Position numbers and translations under genes: made by a program. A DNA stretch of 44,636 nt. Origin: Gomphosphaeria aponina SAG 52.96 = DSM 107014. Lineage in GTDB: Bacteria > Cyanobacteriota > Cyanobacteriia > Cyanobacteriales > Gomphosphaeriaceae. Where the stretch lies: positions 1-44,636 of the forward strand of contig JADQBC010000010.1 in the NCBI GenBank assembly GCA_016903655.1, in the 5' to 3' direction. Position 1 is the stretch's first letter; the number at the start of each line of letters is the position of its first letter. This document shows positions 3,343-39,185 of this stretch, in pieces. The notes under the pieces were generated by a model. The model was not told the DNA's origin and searched no databases. It saw only the letters and a program-made list of their open reading frames with translations.

Positions 3343-3391
3343 TCAACCATCAACAATTAACCATTAACCATTAACCATCAACCATCAACCA
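3343..3391 (+). repeat. Heptamer array (TCAACCA/TTAACCA)x7 running into the start codon of the next kinase gene
   Basis: tcaacca tcaacaa ttaacca ttaacca ttaacca tcaacca tcaacca followed by tg; the last A is the A of ATG at 3391. Confidence 0.9.
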
Positions 3392-4965
3392 TGAGTCACT
3401 GTTTGAATCCTGAATGTCTGCATAAAAATCCCTTGGGGACAAAACTTTGTGAGCGGTGCGGGTCAAAAATACTGTTATGGGATCGCTATCGAGCAGTACA
3501 TTGTATCGGTGCAGGGGGAATGGGGCGCACTTTTTTAGCAGTAGATCAACATCGGTTAAACAGTCGCTGCGTCATTAAACAATTTATAGATTTAAAACAA
3601 GCTGGGAGACAAAGAGATAAATTAATTAAATTATTTAAACAGGAAGCAATTCGCCTAGACGAGTTAGGGGAACATCCTCAAATTCCCGACCTGTTAGCTT
3701 TTAAGGAACAAGAAGGAAGACTATATTTGGTACAAGAATTTATTAATGGTCAAGATTTACTAAGAGAGTTGGACAAAGAAGGATTATTTACTGAAGAAAA
3801 GGTGATAAAAATCCTCAATGATTTATTACCAGTGCTGGAATTTATTCACAAAAAAAATATAATTCATCGGGATATAAAACCAGCTAATATTATTAGAAAT
3901 GAACAAGGGGATTTAGTCTTAATTGATTTTGGAGTAGCCAAAGAATTAACAGATACTGCACTAAATTCACAAGGAACTATTGTAGGGACTGCTGCCTATG
4001 CGGCACCAGAACAACTCCAAGGAATGGCATTTCCCGCAAGCGATCTCTATGGTTTAGGGGCAACTTGTATTCGCTTATTAACAGGAGCATTTCGCAAATC
4101 AGATGGATCTGATGAGTTATTTGATCCGCTCAAGATGGAGTGGAAATGGCGACATAAAACTTCAACAAGCGAGAATTTAGGTAATGTGTTAGATAAATTA
4201 GTGCAGTATCGAGTAAGCGATCGCTTTCACACGGCGGCTGAAGTTTTAACTGCACTCGCACCCCAACCAATTAAATTAAATCGTCCTCCCCAACCACCTC
4301 CACCACCTGCACCCATGAGCAAAACTGGGCTTCGGAAATATAGAAGCACTTTCTCTACCACAAAAACCCCTTTTTCTCCCGAAGAGCAACCGACAAAAAT
4401 AAATGAAAAGAGAAATCAACTCCCTGTAGCAGAGCCAACCACCTTTGTCATACCTGCTGTGACTGCGGTTTCTATTCCTAGTGATGTTAGTGCTGACTAT
4501 ACAAAATTAAGAGATTTATTACACGGTCAAAAATATCTTGAAGCAGATCGAGAAACTTATAAATTAATGTTGCGAGTTGCTCGTCGCGATCCTCAAGGAT
4601 GGTTGCGACCAGAAGATCTAGAAAAATTCCCCTGCACTGACTTAAAAATCCTTGACCAACTCTGGGGAGAATACAGTGGTGGACGCTTTGGTTTTACTAT
4701 GCAAAAACAGATTTATCAAAGTTTAGGCGGTACTGAAAAATATCATAAACAAATATGGCTAGAATTTTGCAAACAAGTAGGTTGGCTGGTGGGGGAAAAA
4801 TGGTTAACTCATTCTCAGTTAAACTTTCAACGGACAGCCCGCATAGGACATTTACCTGTGGCTAATGCTACGGATTTAATGGGAGGTATGGTTGTGTTGA
4901 ATACTAACTTAATTGATCATGGATATTTTACTGCTCTCATTCAGAAAATTGGTGTTTGTTGTTGA
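3391..4965 (+). CDS. Ser/Thr protein kinase with N-terminal zinc ribbon and C-terminal GUN4 domain
   Basis: CLNPECLHKNPLGTKLCERCG; GAGGMGRTFLA; HRDIKPANI; C-terminal DYTKLRDLLHGQKYLEADRETYKLMLRVARRDPQGWLRPEDLEKFPCTDLKILDQLWGEYSGGRFGFTMQKQIYQSLGG is GUN4-like. Confidence 0.92.
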   Translation: MSHCLNPECLHKNPLGTKLCERCGSKILLWDRYRAVHCIGAGGMGRTFLAVDQHRLNSRCVIKQFIDLKQAGRQRDKLIKLFKQEAIRLDELGEHPQIPDLLAFKEQEGRLYLVQEFINGQDLLRELDKEGLFTEEKVIKILNDLLPVLEFIHKKNIIHRDIKPANIIRNEQGDLVLIDFGVAKELTDTALNSQGTIVGTAAYAAPEQLQGMAFPASDLYGLGATCIRLLTGAFRKSDGSDELFDPLKMEWKWRHKTSTSENLGNVLDKLVQYRVSDRFHTAAEVLTALAPQPIKLNRPPQPPPPPAPMSKTGLRKYRSTFSTTKTPFSPEEQPTKINEKRNQLPVAEPTTFVIPAVTAVSIPSDVSADYTKLRDLLHGQKYLEADRETYKLMLRVARRDPQGWLRPEDLEKFPCTDLKILDQLWGEYSGGRFGFTMQKQIYQSLGGTEKYHKQIWLEFCKQVGWLVGEKWLTHSQLNFQRTARIGHLPVANATDLMGGMVVLNTNLIDHGYFTALIQKIGVCC

Positions 4966-5017
4966 TGGTTGATGGTTGATAGTTGATAGTTGATGGTTGA
5001 TAGTTGATGGTTGATGG
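4962..5017 (+). repeat. Heptamer array (TTGATGG/TTGATAG)x8, inverted relative to the array at 3343-3391
   Basis: Eight consecutive 7-mers differing only at position 6; the kinase stop codon TGA (4963-4965) lies in the first unit. Confidence 0.9.
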
Positions 5018-5044
5018 TCTTCCATGAACGATTAACAATAAAAA

Positions 5045-6313
5045 CTAATGAGAGAGATAATTATTCGCTGTCAACAACATAATCAGTCCAGTTATCAAAG
5101 CAGTTTTATATGATTGGGGAACAGGATTTTTATTTTTTTTATTTGAATTAAAAACTATAGAAGTGGATTGAGGTTGGTATTTTCCCACCTGTTGTAAGCA
5201 TAAAAACCAATCAATAGTTTCTGGCTTCACCCATCCTTTTTTCACAGCTATTTCTCCAAACCTTTTACCTGTTAGAGACTGCTCATTTAAAATAGAAGAT
5301 ATTTGTTTGGTTGTTAAGATGTTAGCTTTTCCGAGATATTCTCCTAAGCGGAGAGCTTGTTGACTTTCAATTAAATCATCTAATTCTTTGGCAAAGAAAT
5401 CAATTACCTCTGGTGATACCCAGCCCTTTTCAACTATAATTTCTCCCAAGAGACGGTGACGTTGTTGTTCCTTGATTTCCAGAGCTGCTTGCAGTTGTTC
5501 TGCTGAAATTAAACCCGCTTTTTTCAGACGTAACCCCAGAGGTAAAGACTGTAATTCTAAGAGCCAAGAAAATTGATAGTGGTTGAGCTTTTGCTGTATC
5601 ACATAACCAAAAAAAGGGAGACTTTCTACTAAGTAGCGCCGCCAAAGACGTTGAGGTTCTGAGGCAAGTCGGAATAACCATTCTAAACCTACTTGACTCA
5701 TCCATTTAGGCGATCGCCGAACACAACCAGCTTCAAAATCTATAGTTGCACCAATTCCCAAAAATACCTTAACATTAACTAACTGGTTTTTATACTTAGC
5801 AATCCACTTTTCTTGTTTAGGAGCGCCCAACCCAACTGCCAAAACTGTAGCCCCAGATTTGTTAATTTTATCAAGAATTTTCTCACATTCTAACTCATCT
5901 TTTTCAAAGCCAAAATCAGGGGAATAAGTATCTACTACTATTTCCCTTTCTACTTGCTGATTAATTTTAATTTTAGCTTTTTCGGCTACTCCTGCTTCAG
6001 CTCCCAATAAAAATATTTTAACTTTTTCGTTGTTTTTGTTATATTGGTAAAAAGCAGGGAATAAATCAGACCCAGAAATCTTTTCTGTGATTGGATTACC
6101 TAAGATTTTTGAAATATATTGGAGAATTTTACTATCGCAAACTCGATATTCTGCGATCTTATAAGCTTTAAGTAATTCAAGATCGTTCTGCAATTTAACT
6201 AAGTGATCTATATTAGGTGTCACCACAAAGCCTCCAGCATGAGTTAGTTTCTCTAATAACTCCTTCATGCTTAAGTTGTCTATCTCTATGTTAAGCAACT
6301 TTACTGGTTTCAT
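5045..6313 (-). CDS. WecG/TagA/CpsF-family glycosyltransferase with C-terminal extension resembling PilB/MshE N-terminal repeats
   Basis: Family pattern TPNIDHLVKL...RVCDSKIL...KISGSDLFPAF...AVGLGAPKQEKW...FLGIGATIDFEAG; C-terminal LRLKKAGLISAEQLQAALEIKEQQRHRLLGEIIVEKGWVSPEVIDFF and RFGEIAVKKGWVKPETIDWFL. Confidence 0.88.
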   Translation of the reverse strand: MKPVKLLNIEIDNLSMKELLEKLTHAGGFVVTPNIDHLVKLQNDLELLKAYKIAEYRVCDSKILQYISKILGNPITEKISGSDLFPAFYQYNKNNEKVKIFLLGAEAGVAEKAKIKINQQVEREIVVDTYSPDFGFEKDELECEKILDKINKSGATVLAVGLGAPKQEKWIAKYKNQLVNVKVFLGIGATIDFEAGCVRRSPKWMSQVGLEWLFRLASEPQRLWRRYLVESLPFFGYVIQQKLNHYQFSWLLELQSLPLGLRLKKAGLISAEQLQAALEIKEQQRHRLLGEIIVEKGWVSPEVIDFFAKELDDLIESQQALRLGEYLGKANILTTKQISSILNEQSLTGKRFGEIAVKKGWVKPETIDWFLCLQQVGKYQPQSTSIVFNSNKKNKNPVPQSYKTALITGLIMLLTANNYLSH

Positions 6314-6559: not shown

Positions 6560-6585
6560 AGACTACCCCTCAAGAGGGGTAGTCT
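6560..6585. other. Perfect 11-bp stem / 4-nt loop hairpin
   Basis: agactacccct caag aggggtagtct; no T-run follows on either strand. Confidence 0.8.
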
Positions 6586-6716
6586 AAAATTAACCCCGAA
6601 TGCGGTTCAATAGTTTAGTAAAAATCTAGGTAAACTTAGGTATAATAGCTCTTAGTTTAACCTGCGATTCCTTTGGGCAAAAGTAGAAGGGGATAAACTC
6701 TAAAACGTAAGTCCAG

Positions 6717-6770
6717 CTTGAAACTGAACCATTCCCTTGAATGCTTGAAACTGAACCATTCCCTTGAATG
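6717..6770 (+). repeat. Two perfect 27-bp tandem copies upstream of the TnpB-like gene
   Basis: cttgaaactgaaccattcccttgaatg at 6717-6743 and 6744-6770. Confidence 0.9.
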
Positions 6771-7077
6771 CAGAACCTTGACAACTCTGTCTTTTTGTAG
6801 GTACAACAATACAGGCTAGTTATCGGTTTGACAGCTAATTATTACTGACAAAGAGATTTGGCAGTAAACTGATTTTTTCTTGATGTAAGCATATTGATAT
6901 AGAAATTATCATCATTAACAAAAAAGCTGAAATATCGCGGAAGAACTGGTGCAGAATGTAAAGAGAGATTATGCAAGTTTTTGCAGCCAGATTATACGGT
7001 CATAGACCGTAGTCATCGAGTCAGAAATTAATTGAGGAGCTAGCTGCAACAACAAAAAAAAATATCAACCCACCCCC

Positions 7078-7107
7078 TTGACGTAAAAGGTTAAATGTTG
7101 TTATAAT
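7078..7107 (+). promoter_or_regulatory. Sigma70-type promoter for the TnpB-like gene
   Basis: TTGACG (7078-7083), 18-nt spacer, TATAAT (7102-7107), about 35 nt before the ATG. Confidence 0.6.
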
Positions 7108-7141
7108 GTTGGCATAGATAAAAAATAGGTTTTAAAAATAT

Positions 7142-8677
7142 ATGCCCCTGGCAGCCCATCATACATACATATTAACTCAAATAATGCCAATAGTAGATTG
7201 TTCAGACTATGAGCAATTGGATTATATTATGAATAAATGTGGCATTGTTCGTTCCGAAGTATATAATAGGCTGGGTTCTCTTAAAGGTTGGGGGAAAAAC
7301 TGGAAATTCACAGATAAAATTATTAGAGAAAAATTAACACCTGAACAATTAGGAATACCATCAAAAATATTTGAATATAGCAGTGTCGATTGTTTTAAAG
7401 CTATTTCAGCGCAACAAGATGCTGCTATTAGTTTTTTAATTAAAGATATTTACCAGAAAACAAATGATGCTAACGAAAGAAAAAGATTAATCAATTTATT
7501 ATCTTCAGAACCTACTAAAGACAATTGGTTACACAGAAAATTTAGAAAACAATATTTAAAAGGACATACTTACTTAAGAAACCAAATAGTTTATCACAAG
7601 CAAGCCTATAAATGTATTAGGATTAGTCGCTACAAGGTAAAAATTCAAGTACAGGGAATTGAAAAAGGTAAGCGCATTACTTTGGTTGTAAAAACCAATA
7701 AATTACCTACTGGTCAAATTAGGGTAATACAAAATAATGGTAAATATGAAATTCATACAGCCTTGAAAAGAAAAGTATCTTCAAAACCTAAAAAAATTGA
7801 GAGAGTAATAGGGTTAGATAAAGGTTATACTGAGGTTTTTTTTAGCTCTGAGAATAAGGTAATTGCTAAAGAATTGGGGACTAAATTAACTCAAAAAACT
7901 GAGAGAATTAACAGGGAGAACAAAAACAGAAATCGTTTATTTGCTAATGGTAAACTTCATAAAAATGAGCAAAAAAGACAGAATATTATTGAGCAGAATT
8001 TAGGGAGAAAAAGAAAGAATAAAAAGCTTAATAAAGACAAACAAGAAATTAAATCTTATATTAGGCAAGAGTTAAAGACTGTCTTAAAAACTCCTACCTT
8101 AATTTATGCTGAAGACTTAACATCACCTATAAGAAATAAAACCCAAAATAAGCGCATCAACAGACAGTTAAATAGTTGGGTCAAGGGTGAATTACAGAAA
8201 TCGCTCGAAGAGATATGTAGGGCTACTGGTTCAACCGTAATAACAGTAAACCCAGCATATACGTCGCAAATAGATCACCTTACGGGGACTTTATTGGGAG
8301 TCAGAAAGGGTGATAGATTTTACCGTTACAATGGGGACGTATTGCAAAGTGATTATAATGCTGCTAAGAATATTCTTGCTCGTGGTACAGAGCAAGAAAT
8401 AACGCGATATACAAAATATCGTGAAGTCAAAACAGTGTTATTAAAACGTACCGTGACATATCTTCACTCCATTGATAGTAGTGTAAGTGAAGCTATAGAC
8501 AATGAGTGGCTAAATTCAAAGTTTAGTAGTGAAGCTTTAGCTATTGAGGAGGATATGTTTCCCCCTGGGGTAGGGGGAAAGATTAAGCAGGATCAAGGGA
8601 GTGGTAATCAAGCTACGAAAGATTCACCAATCTATCACGCAAATGAGTGTGGTCAGTTAGAATTACCTGGCTTTTGA
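7142..8677 (+). CDS. TnpB/Cas12-like RuvC nuclease lacking the Cys zinc ribbon
   Basis: RuvC-I VIGLDKGYTEVFF, RuvC-II LIYAEDLTSPI, RuvC-III LQSDYNAAKNILAR; between YTSQ and SDYNAAKN there are no cysteines. Confidence 0.85.
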   Translation: MPLAAHHTYILTQIMPIVDCSDYEQLDYIMNKCGIVRSEVYNRLGSLKGWGKNWKFTDKIIREKLTPEQLGIPSKIFEYSSVDCFKAISAQQDAAISFLIKDIYQKTNDANERKRLINLLSSEPTKDNWLHRKFRKQYLKGHTYLRNQIVYHKQAYKCIRISRYKVKIQVQGIEKGKRITLVVKTNKLPTGQIRVIQNNGKYEIHTALKRKVSSKPKKIERVIGLDKGYTEVFFSSENKVIAKELGTKLTQKTERINRENKNRNRLFANGKLHKNEQKRQNIIEQNLGRKRKNKKLNKDKQEIKSYIRQELKTVLKTPTLIYAEDLTSPIRNKTQNKRINRQLNSWVKGELQKSLEEICRATGSTVITVNPAYTSQIDHLTGTLLGVRKGDRFYRYNGDVLQSDYNAAKNILARGTEQEITRYTKYREVKTVLLKRTVTYLHSIDSSVSEAIDNEWLNSKFSSEALAIEEDMFPPGVGGKIKQDQGSGNQATKDSPIYHANECGQLELPGF

Positions 8678-8774
8678 AATCTAGGCAATCAATCACATAC
8701 CTAAGTTTACATAGGTTTAGTGTACCCCAGTCAAAGCAGATAAAATCAAGTAAGTAATTGAAAGTCCCACTAAA

Positions 8775-29866: not shown

Positions 29867-32800
29867 TCAAATATTTCCTTGTTTGACTTCAACTCTAACA
29901 ATAGTTGTCTGAGAACCTTTTTGTGCAAACCAGGTTACACGTTCTTGAACTAAATCTAATTCTAACAAATAGTTACCTGGTTGTTTTGGTGCAGTAATAG
30001 TTAAAGAAAGTTCAATTTCTTCTGAAGGGGCAAAATTTTCTGGTAAATATGTTCTGCCATCATCCCATTGAATTACTTGTTCGTTTTCATCTAACCAATG
30101 ATTTCCTAATTTGATTGGGGTATAAGGGAAAAATTTCCAAATTCCAGAACTTATATTCTTAACTTTTACTGGAATTTTTACCTGTTCTTCTACTGATAAA
30201 CTTAAATATTCTTGAGCTGTTATTTCTGCTCTAAAGCTTGAACCTTCACTTTCATTTACAGTTAGTTCAATTATTTGATTGTTGATTTCTTTATTGTTAA
30301 ACACAACCAAAGGTGAGTGAATTAAAAATAAGTTGATTAAATAATCACCTGGTAATAAAGGTGCAATTACAGGAACCAGTAATTCTGCTTCTTCTGATGG
30401 TTTTACTAGCATAGGTAATGCAATTCTTTCATCACTATACAATTTTTCTTTTTGTTCATTGTTTGACAAGTAATAACCAACATATATAACATTTTCAATT
30501 GATTTTGTTTCCCAAACTAAAGAACTTATGTTTTTAACTTTTACTGGAAGCAGATAAGTTTTTCCTGTAGAAATATTTAAAGTTCTTTGTGTGGTTATTT
30601 GTGCTTGATATGCTGACTTTTCAAAAGGAAAATTATAATTTTGCTGATTAATATATTTTTGAATTGTTTCTCCTAATATGTCAATTTGGTTTGCTTCTGT
30701 GAAAATATGGTGATTGCTATTAATTATTGCGATTTCTAACCCCATCTCAAACTGTTGATACCAATCTATTTGAGAATCTACACGAGAAAAAATATAAGGA
30801 TTCAAATTGCTTTGAGAGGCAAAAATTAAAACTAATTTTCCTAAATATTGTCGAGGGATATAACTTTCTGTTAAAACCAATAAGGCTACTTTTTTTCCAA
30901 AATTCTGAAGTTGTTCTGCTATTTCAAAAACAACTTTACCTCCCAAACAATAACCCCCTAAAAAGTAATTACCATTGGGTTGTATGGTTAAAATTTCCGA
31001 AACATAATAAGCAGCTAAATTTTTAATATTCTCTTCATTTACCCAACCGTAACCAGAAAATAAGCCATATAATGGTTGGTTTTCATCTAAATAGTTAGCA
31101 AGAAAAGATGTTTCACCAAATCCGTTAGAACACCAAAACAAAGGTGGTAGAGTTCCGTTTGTATTTGTTCCCACAATTAACCCTTCCTCTTTTACCCTTT
31201 TCCATTCCCATCCAGCAGTTAAAGCAAGAATATGGCGATACTCTTCATTTGTTATTGGTAATTTTTGGAGAGATTCTTTTGCTTGTTTTTGACTAATTAA
31301 CTTCGCTTGTTCTGCAATATTTGTGAGTTGAAACAGAACAGCTAAAGGCAGTTTTTGATTAAATGTTTTTTCGATTTCAGCTAGTAATTTTACAGAAAGT
31401 AGAGAATGTCCTCCTAACTCGAAGAAGTTATCAGTTATACCTATACCTTTAATTCCTAATACCTCTTCCCAAATTTGGGTTAGTTTTATCTCTAATTCAT
31501 TCTTCGGGGCTAGATAATTTGTTTCTAATTCTTGTCTGGTTGTGTCTGGTTTAGGTAATGCTCTTCGGTCTATTTTTCCATTGGGAGTTAGGGGTAATGC
31601 TTCCAAAAATACGAACCCATTAGGTATCATATATTCTGGTAGCTTGGTAGCTAAGAATGAGCGTAACTCACTGATGCTTTGATGTTTGGCTACAATGTAG
31701 GCTACTAAACTCTTGTTATCTGGTGTGTCTTCTCTGACAATTACTACTGCTTCTTTTACTTCTAAATGTTGGTTTAATATTGTCTCTATTTCCCCTAACT
31801 CTATGCGATATCCTCTGATTTTTACTTGGTTATCAATTCGCCCAATAAATTCAATATTACCATGGGGTAAATAACGAGCTAAATCACCTGTTTTATATAA
31901 TTTTCCTGCACCAAAAGGATTATAAATAAATTTTTCTGCGGTTAATTCTGGGCGGTTTAAATATCCTCTGGCTACTCCTTTTCCTGCAAGATATAATTCT
32001 CCTACTACCCCAATGGGAGTTGGTTGCAAGTTGGTATCTAAAATATAAATTTTAGTATTGCTTATTGGTTTCCCTATGGGTAAATTATCGGCATTTTCTA
32101 CCACATTATTAACAGGGTACCAAGTTGAAAATGTAGTGTTTTCTGTGGGCCCATAAACGTGAATTAAGTTTTCTGGTTTTCCTTTTTCTATGATTTCTTT
32201 TACCCATTTTGGCTCTACTTTTTCTCCGCCAAATAAGACATATTTAAAAGTGTTAAATGCTTGAGGATGAATACTAGCTATTTGATTGAATAAAGCTGTG
32301 GTTATAAAAATTGTATCTAGCTCTTTTTCTTTTAATTGCTCAATAAATAATTCTAATTGTAAAGTAGTCTCTTTGGGAAAAATGACTAATTTAGCTCCAT
32401 TTAATAAAGCTCCCCAAATTTCAAAAGTAGCAGCATCAAAGGATGTATTTGCAATTTGAGCTATTTTAGCTGCAGGGCGAATGTTTATATAGTTGGTGTT
32501 TTTGACTAATCTATTAACTGATTTATGCTTGACTAATACACCTTTTGGTTTTCCTGTTGAACCAGATGTATAAATGACATAAGCTAAATTTTTACTACAA
32601 ACTGCACTTTTAAGATTTTCTTTGCTTTCTGGTTCAATTTTATCCCATGTGTCAGTACGGACAATTTTTCCTGGATAAGAAAATAGTTTTTCTTCTGACT
32701 TTTCTGTTGTTAATAAAACGGAAATTTTAGCATTATCTAACATATAAATAAGGCGATCGCTTGGATAATTTGGCTCTAATGGTACATAAGCTCCTCCTGC

Positions 32801-34720
32801 TTTTAATATCCCTAATATTCCTATTATCATTTCTAGCGATCGTTCTACACAAATTCCCACTAAAGTCTCTGGTTTTACCCCTAATTTTTGTAAATAATGT
32901 GCTAGTTGATTTGCTTTTTCATTTAATTGAGAGTAAGTTAATTGTTGCTCTTCAAACACAACTGCAATCTTATCGGGTGTTTTGGCTACTTGCTCTTCAA
33001 ATAGTTGATGAATACATTTATCTTTGGGATCATCTGTTTTAGTGTTATTCCAGTCTCTTAATATTTGTTGTTTTTTTGCTTGTGTTAAGAGAGGTAAGTG
33101 TGAGATTTTCTCATCTGGGTTATTAATGATACCTCTTAAGAGAATTTGAAAATGTCTTGTCATTCTCTTAATGGTAGCTGAGTTAAATAAATCAGTATTA
33201 TATTCAAATGTTATTTCAATTCCTCCTTGTTTTTGTCTGATATAAAGGGTTAAATCAAATAAAGAGCGATTTTTTTCAATGTTGATTCTTTCTTTAAATG
33301 AAGAACAATTAAGAGAGCTATTTTCTGGAGTATTCAGAAAGTTAAACATTACCTGAAAAATAGGTGACTGACTTAAATTTCTGTCTGGTTGTAATTCTTC
33401 TATTAATTTCTCAAAAGGTAAATCTTGATTTTCATAAGCTTCTAAACTGACTTGTTTTACTTGCTGTAAGAATTGTCGAAAACTTAAATTACTATTGAGC
33501 TGGTTTCTTAAAGCTAAAGTGTTTAAAAAACAACCAATTAAATTTTCTGTTTCTAATTTTTTCCGCCCTGCAATAGGAGTACCAACAATAATATCTTCTT
33601 GCCCTGTATAACGACATAATAATACTTTAAATGCTGCGAGTAACAGCATAAATAAAGTTACCTTTTCTTCTTGGCTAATTTGCTTCAGATTTTTTTCTAA
33701 TTCATTGGGCAATAAAAATGCAATACTTTTGCCTTGATAACTAGGTATTAAAGGACGTTTTTTATCAGTTGGTAAGTTAAGAATAGGAAGTTGACCACTT
33801 AATTTTTCTTTCCAGTATTTTACTTGTTTTTTATATAATTCTTGAGTTAATTGTTTTTTCTGCCAGATGGCAAAATCTCCATATTGAATTGGTAATTCTG
33901 GGAGGGTATTAGTTGCTCTTTTTTCTAGGGTTTCATAGCAAGTTAATAATTCTTTAATAATAATTTCTGATGACCAACCATCAGAAATGATATGATGATT
34001 TACTAGCAAGAGAATATACTCATTATTGGCTAACCGAAATAATGTAGCTCTCAGCATTAAATCTTGAGCTAAATTAAAAGGCTTTTCTATTATTTGAGTT
34101 GCTAATTTCTGAAAGGTTTTTTGTTCTTCTGACTCATCAGCTAAATTAATTATGGGTAATTCTAATGACCAATTTTCAGCAATAATTTGCTTTAATTCTC
34201 CATTTTCACTCCTGAATGTTGTTCTTAAGGTTTCATGTCTGGTAATAATTTGATTTAGTGCTTGTTTTAAATTTTCAATGTTCAGCTCTTGAGTGAATTT
34301 AAAAGCTTTAGGCATATTATAGACTGGAGAGTCTGGTTCCAATTGATTGAGAAACCAAAATCTGGTTTGGGTAAAAGAAGCGGGGTAAGAGTTACAGTCA
34401 TTATTTCTGACAATTTTATTTTCTTGTGTTAGCTGTTTTTCTGCTAAACGGCGAAGGAGTAATTCTTTTTTTTCTGGGGATAAATTAGCTATTTTTGCTT
34501 GTATATCAGTATTGTTATCCATAGGAAAAATAGTCTGTTGTGCGGTTTGATTCGTTTCTGTGAGTAAGGTAATAATTTCAGGTTTATTTTCCTTTATTGT
34601 TTGTCTAATTTCTGGTGTCATCGCTCCCGTTGGAGCACTATAAAGTAAACGCCCTTCTTCAACCCACAGTTTAATATTTAGTTTTTCTAGTTTGGATAAT
34701 ATATTTTTAATATCTTTCAT
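29867..34720 (-). CDS. NRPS: TubC-like docking - C - A - PCP - TE, then two Ig/NBR1-like domains
   Basis: Docking LSKLEKLNIKLWVEEGRLLYSAPTGAMTPEIRQTIKENKPEII; C HHIISDG; A YTSGSTGKPKG, VYGPTE, YKTGD; PCP NFFELGGHSLL; TE GGYCLGG; C-terminal VKVKNISSGIWKF...LPENFAPSEEIELSLTITAPKQPGNYLLELDLVQERVTWFA. Confidence 0.93.
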   Translation of the reverse strand: MKDIKNILSKLEKLNIKLWVEEGRLLYSAPTGAMTPEIRQTIKENKPEIITLLTETNQTAQQTIFPMDNNTDIQAKIANLSPEKKELLLRRLAEKQLTQENKIVRNNDCNSYPASFTQTRFWFLNQLEPDSPVYNMPKAFKFTQELNIENLKQALNQIITRHETLRTTFRSENGELKQIIAENWSLELPIINLADESEEQKTFQKLATQIIEKPFNLAQDLMLRATLFRLANNEYILLLVNHHIISDGWSSEIIIKELLTCYETLEKRATNTLPELPIQYGDFAIWQKKQLTQELYKKQVKYWKEKLSGQLPILNLPTDKKRPLIPSYQGKSIAFLLPNELEKNLKQISQEEKVTLFMLLLAAFKVLLCRYTGQEDIIVGTPIAGRKKLETENLIGCFLNTLALRNQLNSNLSFRQFLQQVKQVSLEAYENQDLPFEKLIEELQPDRNLSQSPIFQVMFNFLNTPENSSLNCSSFKERINIEKNRSLFDLTLYIRQKQGGIEITFEYNTDLFNSATIKRMTRHFQILLRGIINNPDEKISHLPLLTQAKKQQILRDWNNTKTDDPKDKCIHQLFEEQVAKTPDKIAVVFEEQQLTYSQLNEKANQLAHYLQKLGVKPETLVGICVERSLEMIIGILGILKAGGAYVPLEPNYPSDRLIYMLDNAKISVLLTTEKSEEKLFSYPGKIVRTDTWDKIEPESKENLKSAVCSKNLAYVIYTSGSTGKPKGVLVKHKSVNRLVKNTNYINIRPAAKIAQIANTSFDAATFEIWGALLNGAKLVIFPKETTLQLELFIEQLKEKELDTIFITTALFNQIASIHPQAFNTFKYVLFGGEKVEPKWVKEIIEKGKPENLIHVYGPTENTTFSTWYPVNNVVENADNLPIGKPISNTKIYILDTNLQPTPIGVVGELYLAGKGVARGYLNRPELTAEKFIYNPFGAGKLYKTGDLARYLPHGNIEFIGRIDNQVKIRGYRIELGEIETILNQHLEVKEAVVIVREDTPDNKSLVAYIVAKHQSISELRSFLATKLPEYMIPNGFVFLEALPLTPNGKIDRRALPKPDTTRQELETNYLAPKNELEIKLTQIWEEVLGIKGIGITDNFFELGGHSLLSVKLLAEIEKTFNQKLPLAVLFQLTNIAEQAKLISQKQAKESLQKLPITNEEYRHILALTAGWEWKRVKEEGLIVGTNTNGTLPPLFWCSNGFGETSFLANYLDENQPLYGLFSGYGWVNEENIKNLAAYYVSEILTIQPNGNYFLGGYCLGGKVVFEIAEQLQNFGKKVALLVLTESYIPRQYLGKLVLIFASQSNLNPYIFSRVDSQIDWYQQFEMGLEIAIINSNHHIFTEANQIDILGETIQKYINQQNYNFPFEKSAYQAQITTQRTLNISTGKTYLLPVKVKNISSLVWETKSIENVIYVGYYLSNNEQKEKLYSDERIALPMLVKPSEEAELLVPVIAPLLPGDYLINLFLIHSPLVVFNNKEINNQIIELTVNESEGSSFRAEITAQEYLSLSVEEQVKIPVKVKNISSGIWKFFPYTPIKLGNHWLDENEQVIQWDDGRTYLPENFAPSEEIELSLTITAPKQPGNYLLELDLVQERVTWFAQKGSQTTIVRVEVKQGNI

Positions 34721-34895
34721 ATTGTTCCTGTTTCTCTGTTTTGTTTTTCTATTATAAATGGATTTTCAGCAAAAGTGGTTATAAGTGTTCGTTTTTCTTT
34801 TTGAAAATTATTTATAGCAGTGCTCGAGTTTGTATTTTTGCGGTCATTTGCGCGGTTATTGAGCGTAGTCGAAATGCAATGACCTTCAACTCAAA

Positions 34896-35513
34896 TTAAA
34901 TTGACCAGATTTGTTGAGGGGTTAATTTTAATTCAGGAAAGGTGGGAGAAATAATTAAACTCTCATTTTGATAAGATTTCATGGCATAGGTTTTATCTTC
35001 TTGGAGGGTATAAACAAAAACTGTCGGTTGTTTTGGATTACCTAAATAACTGCGAGAAGCGATCGCCTCATAATCTATAATCCAGTATTCAGGAATGCCC
35101 AAAAGTTGATATTCTTCTAGTTTATCCACATAGTCATCTTCCCAATTTGTGGAAACTACTTCAACTACTAAATTAGGAGCATCTAGTAAAGCGGAATAAG
35201 CAGTAGGATGAGCTTCCCATATTGTTTTATCTATCACTGTTACATCAGGATTACGACCTCTTTCTTTTCCTTCTTTATTTTCTGTTCTAATTACAATTCT
35301 GCCAGAAACTCGATAATTAAGTTTTGCTCTTTCAACCTCTTTATCAAACTGTCGAATGATAAAATCAGCAAGATCTTCATGTCTTCTTGTAGCTAAAGTA
35401 CGCATAATTTCTCCGTTTACTAATTCATAACGTCCTTCTTCATCTGGCAATTGTTTGATAAATTGTTCAAAAGTGAGTAGTTTTTGTTCAGGTTTGTTGA
35501 TGGTTGTTATCAT
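34896..35513 (-). CDS. Uma2 family (DUF820) putative endonuclease
   Basis: TFEQFIKQLPDEEGRYELVNGEIM; PNLVVEVVSTNWEDDYVDKLEEYQLLGIPEYWIIDY. Confidence 0.92.
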   Translation of the reverse strand: MITTINKPEQKLLTFEQFIKQLPDEEGRYELVNGEIMRTLATRRHEDLADFIIRQFDKEVERAKLNYRVSGRIVIRTENKEGKERGRNPDVTVIDKTIWEAHPTAYSALLDAPNLVVEVVSTNWEDDYVDKLEEYQLLGIPEYWIIDYEAIASRSYLGNPKQPTVFVYTLQEDKTYAMKSYQNESLIISPTFPELKLTPQQIWSI

Positions 35514-35596
35514 GGTTAACCTCGTCTGTGTTAAATTTTAATTGCCTCTCTGTTATCTTATCATTTTAGCGCATAAATGGTAATTGAGCAACTAAT

Positions 35597-38500
35597 TTAA
35601 ATTTCCCCTATCTCTAGAGTTTGATAAGTGTTATTTAATCTATCAGCTAATTCTTCAATAGTTGTATATTCAAATAAATCAGGCAAAGGTAATTCTATCT
35701 GAAAAATATTTCTAATTCTGGCTACTATTTGTGTGGCTAATAAAGAATGTCCACCTAAGGCAAAAAAGTTATCATTAATGCTTATTTTTTCAATGTTTAA
35801 TACTTCCTGCCAAATTTGGGCTAATTTTATTTCTATTTCATTACTAGGTGCAACAAATTCATCTTCCCTGTTAGTTTCAAAATCTGGCGCTGGTAATGCT
35901 TTTCTGTCTATTTTTCCGCTGGGAGTAAGAGGAAAAGCATCTAAAAACACAAAAGCCGAAGGAATCATATAATCAGGGAGCTTTTTGCTTAAAAATTGCC
36001 TGATTTCTTTTATTTCTATTGGCTTTTTAGTAATAATATAAGCAGTTAAATACTTATCTCCCTGTTCATTTTCTCTGGCAATAACTACTGTTTCTTTTAT
36101 ATCTGGATGTTGATTAAGATTAGCTTCAATTTCTCCTAATTCTATGCGAAAACCTCTGATTTTTACCTGGTTATCTATTCTGCCTAAAAATAATATACTG
36201 CCATCTGCTTTTAAACGTCCTCTATCTCCTGTACGATAAATTCTTTGATTATTTTCTGCTAAAATAAATTTGGCTTGTGTCAGCGCTGGTTGTTGCCAAT
36301 ATTCTAATGCAACATAAGGACTTTTAATAGCAATTTCTCCATAAACTTCATTATTTTTTCCTGCTTCATTCAATAATAAAATTTCTGTGTCTTCTATCGG
36401 ATATCCAATAGGTATATTTTCCCCCATATTTTCTGTTTTTTGATTGATAAAATATTGCAGATTGAAGCTTGATTCTGTTTGACCAAAAATATTAGTTAAA
36501 ATACATGATTCAGGAAAATATTTTTGAAACAATTCTACATCTTTTTTAACTACTTTTTCTCCCCCTAACACAACTAATCGCATATCATTTAGTTGTGATG
36601 AATTGCTGGCGGCTAATGTTTCCATTAAATAACGATAAACTGTGGGAGTGGAATGATAAATTGTGATTTTTTCCCTGATTAACCATTCCAACAAACTGCT
36701 CATACTTTCATTTTTTACATCACAGGGATATAAGGTTGCTCCATTTAATAATGCGCCAAAAATATCCATAATAGCAGCATCAAAACTAATTGATGATATT
36801 AAAGTTAATTTATCATTACTGTTCAGGTGAAGATTATTTGTATAATTTCTGATAAAATGAAGCACATTTCTGTGATTTTGTCCCACTCCTTTGGGTTTTC
36901 CTGTTGAACCTGAAGTGTAAAAAATATAAGCAATACTATCTGGGGCAATTGATGGGTTATTTTGCAGGTTTTGGTTTAATTCTATTTCATCAAAGTTAAT
37001 GATTGGTATGTTTTCCTGGGTTAACTCTATGGCTAAATTATAGTTATTATTATTGGTAATAATAACCGTTGCTTGTGCATCTTCTAAGATATAATTTAAC
37101 CGTCCTTGAGGATAAGATGCGTCTAAGGGTACATAAGTTTTTCCTGCGGTTAATACTCCTAATATTGCTGCTATTGCAGGTGCATCATGTTCAAATAATA
37201 ACCCTATTCTTGTTGTTTCATGAGTTGATTGCAGTTGTTGAATTTGAAAGGCGATCGCTTTTACCCATTCATTCAATTCTGCATAACTCCAGCAATATTT
37301 TTGACTTTTTATTGCTATTTGTTCTGGGTATTTTGGCACTTGTTGCGCAAATCTTGCTGGTATTGATTGCTCTATTTCTTGTTTGGTAAATTCTGTAAAT
37401 GGTCTTAATGTAATTATATTATTTTTATTATTATTCCAGTCAATTAATATTTGCTGTTTTTCTGCTGCTGTTAAGAGAGGAAGTAGGGAGATTTTCTCGT
37501 GAGGATTATTAATAATACCTTTTAACAAGACTTGAAAATGTCCCGCCATCCGCTCAATAGTTGACCGCTCAAATAAATCAGTATTGTATTCAAAATAACA
37601 ATCCAGTCCTGATTTATTTTCCACAATATCCAAACTTAAATCTAATGCTGCAACTCCTCGGTCAAACTTTACTTCTTCTATGGTTAAATCTTCTATTTCT
37701 ACGGTAGATCCTGGTAAATTCCTCAATTGAAATAATACCTGAAATAAGGGATTATGAGTTAAAGAGCGTTCTGGGTTTAATTCTGCTACCAATTTCTCAA
37801 AAGGTATATCTTGATTAGCATAAGCTTCTTTTGCTACTTCAATAACTTGCGCTAATAATTCCTGAAAAGTTAAATCACCATTTAACTGAATACGCAACGC
37901 TAAAGTATTAATAAAAACCCCAATTAATTTTTCTATTTCTAACCGTGAACGTCCTGCAATAGGACAACCTAAAATGATATCTTCTTCCCCTGTATAACGA
38001 TATAATAAACTCGCAAAAGCTGCCAACAAAGTCATAAATAGTGTTGCATTTTGTTGCCAACTTAAATCTTTCAGAGATTTACTCAAAGTTGGGGATAAAG
38101 TTAAACAATGTTTTGCACCTGAAAATGTTTGTAATGCTTGGCGCTGTCTATCAGTAGGTAACTCTAATATTGGTAAATTCCCACTTAATTTATTTAGCCA
38201 ATAATTTAATTGAGATTGTAATTTTTCCCCTTGTAACTGTTCTTTTTGCCACTGAGCAAAATCTGCATATTGTATGGTTAAATCTGGTAAGGGTGATGGT
38301 AAATTTTGACTAAAAGCTTGATATAATTTGCCTAATTCTTCAATTAAAACCCCTGCTGACCAACCATCAAATACAATATGATGTGTGGTTAATAATAAAA
38401 TTTGCTTTTCTTCTTTAAGTTGCACTAAACTTGCTCTTAATAAAGCATCTTTGGCTAAATTAAATGGTCGTTGTGCTTCTTCTTTGATTAGTTTTTCTAA

Positions 38501-38926
38501 TTGTTTTTTCTGTTCATTTAAAGAGCGTAAATCAATGATTGATAATTTTAAGTTAACCTGAGAATTTATTTCTTGAATAGGTAAACCATCAACAAGGATA
38601 TATTTACTTCTTAAAACTTCATGGCGACGCAAAATTTCATTTAAACTAAACTCCAGTGCCGTTACATTTAACTTACCTGCCAGTTTAATATTAATAGGGC
38701 GGTTATAAGCAGTATTTTCTGGTTCTAATTGTTGCAGAAACCACATTCTTTCTTGCGCAAAGGAAAGGAGGAAATTTTCCCTATTTACTCTTTTGGTAAT
38801 AGTTTGTTGTTGTTTTACTGCTGCTCTTTTTTGCTGCATTTTTTGCTCAAACAGCGTTCTTTGTGCGGGGGTTAAATTAGCAATCCGTTTGTTTATTTCA
38901 TTGTTCATTTTTTGCTTATTATCCAT
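35597..38926 (-). CDS. NRPS module C - A - PCP
   Basis: C HHIVFDG; A FYTSGSTGKPKG, FGQTES, YRTGDRGR; PCP NFFALGGHSLLATQ. Start placed at MDNKQKMNNEINKRIANLTPAQR to avoid overlapping the upstream gene. Confidence 0.93.
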   Translation of the reverse strand: MDNKQKMNNEINKRIANLTPAQRTLFEQKMQQKRAAVKQQQTITKRVNRENFLLSFAQERMWFLQQLEPENTAYNRPINIKLAGKLNVTALEFSLNEILRRHEVLRSKYILVDGLPIQEINSQVNLKLSIIDLRSLNEQKKQLEKLIKEEAQRPFNLAKDALLRASLVQLKEEKQILLLTTHHIVFDGWSAGVLIEELGKLYQAFSQNLPSPLPDLTIQYADFAQWQKEQLQGEKLQSQLNYWLNKLSGNLPILELPTDRQRQALQTFSGAKHCLTLSPTLSKSLKDLSWQQNATLFMTLLAAFASLLYRYTGEEDIILGCPIAGRSRLEIEKLIGVFINTLALRIQLNGDLTFQELLAQVIEVAKEAYANQDIPFEKLVAELNPERSLTHNPLFQVLFQLRNLPGSTVEIEDLTIEEVKFDRGVAALDLSLDIVENKSGLDCYFEYNTDLFERSTIERMAGHFQVLLKGIINNPHEKISLLPLLTAAEKQQILIDWNNNKNNIITLRPFTEFTKQEIEQSIPARFAQQVPKYPEQIAIKSQKYCWSYAELNEWVKAIAFQIQQLQSTHETTRIGLLFEHDAPAIAAILGVLTAGKTYVPLDASYPQGRLNYILEDAQATVIITNNNNYNLAIELTQENIPIINFDEIELNQNLQNNPSIAPDSIAYIFYTSGSTGKPKGVGQNHRNVLHFIRNYTNNLHLNSNDKLTLISSISFDAAIMDIFGALLNGATLYPCDVKNESMSSLLEWLIREKITIYHSTPTVYRYLMETLAASNSSQLNDMRLVVLGGEKVVKKDVELFQKYFPESCILTNIFGQTESSFNLQYFINQKTENMGENIPIGYPIEDTEILLLNEAGKNNEVYGEIAIKSPYVALEYWQQPALTQAKFILAENNQRIYRTGDRGRLKADGSILFLGRIDNQVKIRGFRIELGEIEANLNQHPDIKETVVIARENEQGDKYLTAYIITKKPIEIKEIRQFLSKKLPDYMIPSAFVFLDAFPLTPSGKIDRKALPAPDFETNREDEFVAPSNEIEIKLAQIWQEVLNIEKISINDNFFALGGHSLLATQIVARIRNIFQIELPLPDLFEYTTIEELADRLNNTYQTLEIGEI

Positions 38927-38954
38927 CCTAATTATTGCCACAATTTTTAAATAT

Positions 38955-39185
38955 TTACTTAACAGCAAGTTTTGAAAGTGCAACAGGTAGTGACTCTCCA
39001 TCTGCAAGATAACATTCTTTCATTCCTTCATAAGCTTCATACAATTCATCTAATGCTTCTTCAGGAGTATCACCAAAAGCAGATACATTAGGTAATTCTA
39101 CTAAATGAGCTAAGAAATCTCCCTGCTCATCTTTATATAAATTGATGGTATATCCATCCCAATCGTAATCTTTTAGTCTATTCAT
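38955..39185 (-). CDS. HicB-like antitoxin-type protein, no HicA partner adjacent
   Basis: DYDWDGYTINLYKDEQGDFLAHLVELPNVSAFGDTPEEALDELYEAYEGMKE. Confidence 0.75.
   Translation of the reverse strand: MNRLKDYDWDGYTINLYKDEQGDFLAHLVELPNVSAFGDTPEEALDELYEAYEGMKECYLADGESLPVALSKLAVK

What the first reader, a model, noticed from the sequence alone, without database searches (positions are those of the whole stretch)
6622..8718. Possible undescribed TnpB-type element: zinc-ribbon-less nuclease between 20/22 bp inverted ends with no transposase
Seen: aaatctaggtaaacttaggtat (6622-6643) matches the reverse complement of 8697-8718 at 20 of 22 positions, and the only large ORF between is a 511-aa TnpB-like protein. 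Known: IS200/IS605 and IS607 elements do not carry terminal inverted repeats, and TnpB is normally an accessory RNA-guided nuclease, not the transposase. Inference: either a non-autonomous DDE-type element has captured a TnpB lineage, or the ends are subterminal recognition hairpins of an unusual IS605-like element. GTTTAGT occurs outside or overlapping both ends (6613-6619, 8715-8721) and could mark the target.
Basis: partly seen in the sequence, partly recalled or inferred. Interest (0 to 1): 0.78.

Follow-up and report, generated by a model that had tools for sequence, protein, structure and literature searches.

The report
IS607 element with decayed transposase gene
The stretch is an old copy of a known kind of jumping gene (IS607 family) whose own transposase gene has decayed while its RNA-guided nuclease gene is still intact; the less ordinary part is that this nuclease belongs to a widespread lineage that has lost the usual zinc-binding ribbon.

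Summary
The 22-bp inverted pair is real (20/22; no shuffle reached that). The reading as a new TnpB element with terminal repeats and no transposase is not supported: relatives place it in the IS607 family. The closest full relatives (Xenococcaceae L118, Crocosphaera L119) carry the same ends, and L119 the same inverted pair, around an intact IS607 serine transposase gene plus a TnpB 58-60% like the window's. In the window that transposase gene is a remnant: an IS607 profile matches 6854-7009 with two stops. Sequence conserved in relatives runs past the repeats to a left end at 6603 and a right end at 8728, so the pair lies 19 and 10 bp inside the ends, with the form and position of IS607 TnpA-binding motifs. 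Filled and empty Moorena sites of a sister subfamily show the IS607 two-base exchange core (CC/TC). The missing zinc ribbon is not decay of this copy: 98 of 103 aligned proteins (window included), from Cyanobacteria and Gammaproteobacteria, lack the four-cysteine ribbon, while the RuvC D-E-D triad is invariant in the two alignments made (18 and 25 proteins). I found no description of this lineage in the papers searched. New variant of a known kind; moderate interest.

The parts
6603..8728 (+). whole IS607-family element, 2126 bp including the core bases at each end
   Evidence: ends shared with relatives, flanks unrelated; the exact core of this subfamily is inferred
6603..6608 (+). left end, (G)C|GGTT
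   Evidence: CGGTT in the window and 11 other loci, G just before it in 11 of 12
   Evidence: the same motif just inside the left end of L118 and L119; role by analogy with PMC6188088
6836..7069 (+). decayed remnant of tnpA, C-terminal third of an IS607 serine transposase
   Evidence: 68% DNA match to L063 tnpA, translated match with stops, NF033518 hit at 6854-7009, E 5.9e-6, two stops
7142..8677 (+). tnpB, 511 aa, RuvC D226-E324-D404 intact, no zinc-ribbon cysteines
   Evidence: predicted structure matches Cas12f and ISFba1 TnpB
8555..8583 (+). hairpin in the proposed right-end guide RNA, overlapping the tnpB 3' end
   Evidence: inverted repeat; 5 of 6 predicted pairs with compensatory changes in 15 loci
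8697..8718 (-). right recombinase-binding motif; right arm of the inverted pair
   Evidence: matching motif in L119 and L120
8715..8728 (+). right end, GTTTAGTGTACCCC; core taken as CC at 8727-8728
   Evidence: AGTKNACCCC boundary in the window and 14 relatives, unrelated flanks after it

Best explanation
The stretch 6603-8728 is an IS607-family insertion sequence. TnpB, guided by an RNA made from the right end, would cut empty sites so that the element is retained by repair. In this copy tnpA has decayed, so it is immobile or movable only in trans, while tnpB is open with an intact catalytic triad. Shown here: ends, tnpA remnant, family, conserved end motifs, two-base core in a sister subfamily. 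Inferred by homology: TnpA binding, circle, guide RNA, nuclease activity.
For: Closest full relatives L118 and L119 have the same ends and an intact upstream tnpA that is IS607 transposase by NF033518 (209 and 214 bits, cut-off 110). The window has the broken remnant, found by DNA match, by translation and by the family profile. Ends conserved in relatives with unrelated flanks. L119 carries the same inverted pair. Six Moorena insertions of a sister subfamily have empty sites showing the CC/TC core once, against both junctions when filled. Motif form and distance from the ends match those described for IS607 and IS1535 (PMC6188088). Right-end hairpin with compensatory changes.
Against: No empty site was found for the window itself. 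In the window's subfamily the left junction reads C-G where a strict CC core would give C-C, so the exact core is open. No TnpA binding, RNA or activity data. The part of the fold that carries the hairpin overlaps coding sequence.
Confidence: 0.93

Rival explanations
1. A non-autonomous DDE-type element with terminal inverted repeats has captured a TnpB gene.
For: An inverted pair of 20/22 flanks a lone intact TnpB gene.
Against: Conserved sequence continues outside both repeats; the gene found between these ends in relatives is a serine transposase, with its remnant in the window; sister-subfamily sites show a two-base core and no longer duplication.
Confidence: 0.01
2. An IS200/IS605-like element whose inverted ends are Y1 recognition hairpins.
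For: TnpB is common in IS200/IS605, and subterminal recognition sequences are typical there (general knowledge).
Against: The two arms lie 2 kb apart and pair with each other, not each as a local hairpin; relatives encode a serine transposase; the core occurs at both ends of Moorena insertions, whereas IS200/IS605 insert 3' of a short motif (PMC10711439).
Confidence: 0.02
3. It is an IS607 element still moved in trans by another IS607 TnpA of the host, rather than a dead relic.
For: tnpB and both ends look intact; the genome has an intact IS607 TnpA on contig C130 and a partial one on C41. TnpB copies of the sister subfamily without a recognised tnpA next to them are numerous in Moorena.
Against: Only one full copy in the held genome; the end motif GTAAACNTAGGTAT occurs nowhere else in it, so the C130 element does not share it exactly. 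The assembly is 76% complete.
Confidence: 0.15

Closest known systems
IS607 family (IS607, IS1535): serine transposase TnpA plus TnpB
   Same: Gene order tnpA-tnpB in relatives, imperfect inverted repeat near but not at the ends, short direct repeats ~10 bp apart, GG (CC) exchange core, no longer target duplication (PMC6188088)
   Different: tnpA decayed in this copy; TnpB has no zinc ribbon; the left core base of this subfamily is not an exact match
TnpB-only (IS1341-type) elements
   Same: One intact gene, tnpB, between ends
   Different: A tnpA remnant is present, so by the rule used in PMC9956272 this is a decayed IS607 element, not IS1341
ISFba1 TnpB and Cas12f (RNA-guided nucleases)
   Same: Fold, RuvC D-E-D triad, proposed right-end RNA
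   Different: No four-cysteine ribbon; 12-17% identity over the top Foldseek matches; no RAGATH-18 or other Rfam hit in the window
pro-Fanzor TnpBs of cyanobacterial IS607 elements (PMC10711439)
   Same: Cyanobacterial, IS607 transposase partner
   Different: Those have DPG in RuvC-I and a moved glutamate; here RuvC-I is D-K-G and the glutamate is in the ED-L motif

Membership tests
IS607 family | IS607-type serine transposase (TnpA) encoded upstream of TnpB | tested here: met
   Intact in L118, L119 and L122; in the window only as a remnant, 6854-7009
IS607 family | Two-base identical core at both ends and in the target, no longer target duplication | tested here: inconclusive
   Met in the Moorena sister subfamily at six sites; in the window's subfamily not established, left junction C-G, right CC, no empty site for the window
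IS607 family | Imperfect inverted repeat and short direct repeats near, not at, the ends | tested here: met
   19 bp in from 6603 and 10 bp in from 8728; description in PMC6188088
IS607 family | TnpA binds the repeated motifs and the element moves as a circle | not testable with these tools
   bench test needed
TnpB nuclease family | RuvC triad D-E-D | tested here: met
   D226, E324, D404 invariant in 18- and 25-sequence alignments
TnpB nuclease family | Four-cysteine zinc ribbon between RuvC-II and RuvC-III | tested here: not met
   0 cysteines in the window region; 98 of 103 aligned proteins have fewer than four; C4 finger is part of the motif in PMC3627910. It therefore departs from that published signature, though TnpB models and fold match
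TnpB nuclease family | RNA-guided DNA cleavage | not testable with these tools
   only a covarying right-end hairpin is seen
IS200/IS605 | Y1 tyrosine transposase or insertion 3' of a fixed motif with only one end bearing it | tested here: not met
   The gene found between the ends in L118, L119 and L122 is a serine transposase; the core is at both ends in the Moorena subfamily. All loci were not scanned for Y1
DDE element with terminal inverted repeats | Repeats at the very ends, with a target duplication | tested here: not met
   Conserved sequence runs beyond both repeats

The most novel reading that the evidence does not exclude
A broad, functional and undescribed TnpB lineage of IS607 elements in Cyanobacteria and Gammaproteobacteria has replaced its zinc ribbon by a conserved metal-free loop (full ribbon, two cysteines and none occur within one clade) and still works as an RNA-guided nuclease.
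Probability: 0.4. Interest if true: 0.5.

Novelty: new variant of a known kind. Interest (0 to 1): 0.35.

Why it matters
It closes a false lead (a new kind of TnpB transposon) and shows how IS607 recombinase-binding sites can look like terminal inverted repeats. What is worth keeping is the nuclease lineage: the four-cysteine zinc finger is treated as part of the TnpB signature (PMC3627910), yet about 100 related proteins, some in many copies per genome, lack it while the aligned ones keep the catalytic residues. That makes the role of the ribbon, and how it was lost, directly testable.

Tried and rejected
Relatives by single-protein peptide patterns in GTDB genomes: none; solved with an alignment. 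PDB by single sequence: none. Empty site for the window: only the coding part of the flanking gene has homologues. Core of the window's subfamily from Crocosphaera: native gene ends in L244 and L247 suggest AG-CC-TT or AG-TC-TT, but no empty site of the same strain was found. Rfam: nothing in the window at gathering thresholds. My flank query for one search was retyped with part missing (3433 bases instead of 5060; much of the L050 left flank and the last G154 flanks were lost); only sites re-aligned base by base are used. A single-sequence fold of the window's right end is not better than shuffles (z -0.86); only the alignment gives support. Paper searches for a ribbon-less IS607 TnpB found none, in a limited library.

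Full report
Observation. The inverted pair 6622-6643/8697-8718 is present at 20/22 and beats chance: 40 dinucleotide shuffles of the region gave at most 18/22, and a 22-mer search with up to 3 mismatches gave no match in shuffles. The ORF 7142-8677 hits Pfam PF07282 (Cas12f1-like TNB) above its cut-off and NCBIfam guided_TnpB below its cut-off (76 against 100 bits).

What it is. A search of 293 genomes of the order found many relatives, several in multiple copies per genome. The nearest, L063/L118 (Xenococcaceae MO_234.B1) and L119 (Crocosphaera MO_188.B44), have an intact tnpA just upstream of tnpB, called IS607 transposase by NF033518 at 209 and 214 bits. The window holds what is left of that gene: 6836-7038 matches L063 tnpA DNA at 68%, 6854-7069 translated matches its C-terminal third at 55% with stops, and the IS607 profile, which owes nothing to these relatives, hits 6854-7009 with two stops. 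Compared with L063, about 190 bp net is missing between the left end and tnpB (from the coordinates), and a 27-bp tandem duplication lies in that stretch.

Ends. L063 and the pieces in G233 share sequence up to the same points and then diverge (in G233 the two ends lie in opposite orientation on one contig, so that copy is rearranged). Across relatives the left end reads C|GGTT with a G before it in 11 of 12 loci, and the right end AGTKNACCCC in the window and 14 relatives, followed by unrelated flanks. In the window this is 6603 and 8728. On the left the arm is two ~10-bp direct repeats. For IS607 elements an imperfect inverted repeat near the ends and short direct repeats were described, with IS1535 motifs starting about 20 bp from its left end (PMC6188088). 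That the motifs bind TnpA here is inference.

Exchange site. In Moorena (sister subfamily; protein 42-45% identical; most copies with no tnpA found next to them) six insertions have homologous unoccupied sites in other Moorena genomes. CC or TC occurs once in the empty site and at both junctions of the filled site. This fits the IS607 two-base core (GG on the other strand; TC is one base off). For the window's own subfamily the target G-CC is inferred from conserved gene ends in Crocosphaera relatives, and the left junction reads C-G, so the core is not exactly repeated there. I leave this open.

Guide RNA. At the right end a hairpin (window 8555-8583) keeps its pairs, with compensatory changes in 5 of 6 pairs over 15 loci; in the Moorena subfamily 14 of 39 predicted pairs show such changes. 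The region overlaps coding sequence in part, and a single-sequence fold of the window is unremarkable. No Rfam family is hit in the window.

Zinc ribbon. The window has no cysteine in this region. Of 103 aligned proteins, window included, 98 have fewer than four cysteines there and 63 have none; five have four or more, of which three are distant canonical TnpBs and two (L116, L117) come from one genome. A tree sets 26 members apart from the three canonical TnpBs at 100/100, with L116/L117 nested inside, next to gammaproteobacterial members most of which keep two cysteines. The root is a midpoint, so whether the ribbon was lost several times or regained is not settled. The set contains near-identical copies and loci fetched twice, and relatives were collected with patterns next to this motif, so 98/103 is a description of what was fetched, not an unbiased frequency. 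The catalytic D226, E324 and D404 are invariant in the 18- and 25-sequence alignments; three Moorena copies outside those alignments have the glutamate region broken by an insertion. The predicted structure is confident there (blocks of pLDDT ~85-92) and Foldseek matches Cas12f and ISFba1 TnpB.

Verdict. A decayed IS607 copy: ordinary in kind. The lineage of TnpB without a zinc ribbon is a variant I found no description of in the papers I could search; whether it is an active nuclease is untested.

Noticed in passing
L073 2758-2902 (own genome, contig C65:7757-7901): A 145-bp fragment 99% identical to window 8564-8708 (tail of tnpB and part of the right end), cut short at both sides; a recent truncated duplicate of this element.
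   Followed up: partly
window 6560-6585: A perfect 12-bp palindrome (AGACTACCCCTC/GAGGGGTAGTCT) just outside the left end; perhaps a terminator of the neighbouring gene.
   Followed up: no
window 6716-6769: Two perfect 27-bp tandem copies inside the decayed tnpA stretch.
   Followed up: no
L243 1650 onward (genome G301, genus of L119): A left end of the same kind at the same gene-end site as in L119, with no tnpA, tnpB or right end seen in the 1.5 kb held after it: apparently a remnant left end.
   Followed up: partly
L104 (own genome, contig C130, about 5717-6256): Another IS607 element with an intact serine transposase and a broken TnpB that has a zinc ribbon; a possible source of transposase in trans.
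   Followed up: partly
L052, L055, L056 (Moorena): Three TnpB copies carry an in-frame insertion VREAWPTA in RuvC-II that replaces the catalytic glutamate; its DNA resembles a repeat seen elsewhere in these flanks.
   Followed up: no
window 3343-3392 and 4961-5018: Heptamer tandem arrays (TCAACCA and GTTGATG, the same family in opposite orientation) flank the protein kinase-GUN4 gene 3391-4965.
   Followed up: no
window 29867-39007: Two nonribosomal peptide synthetase genes (condensation, AMP-binding, PP-binding; TubC docking and thioesterase domains).
   Followed up: no
L256-L270: 15 viral-collection contigs encode relatives of this TnpB, 30-47% identical in the best segment, some on contigs over 100 kb.
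   Followed up: no
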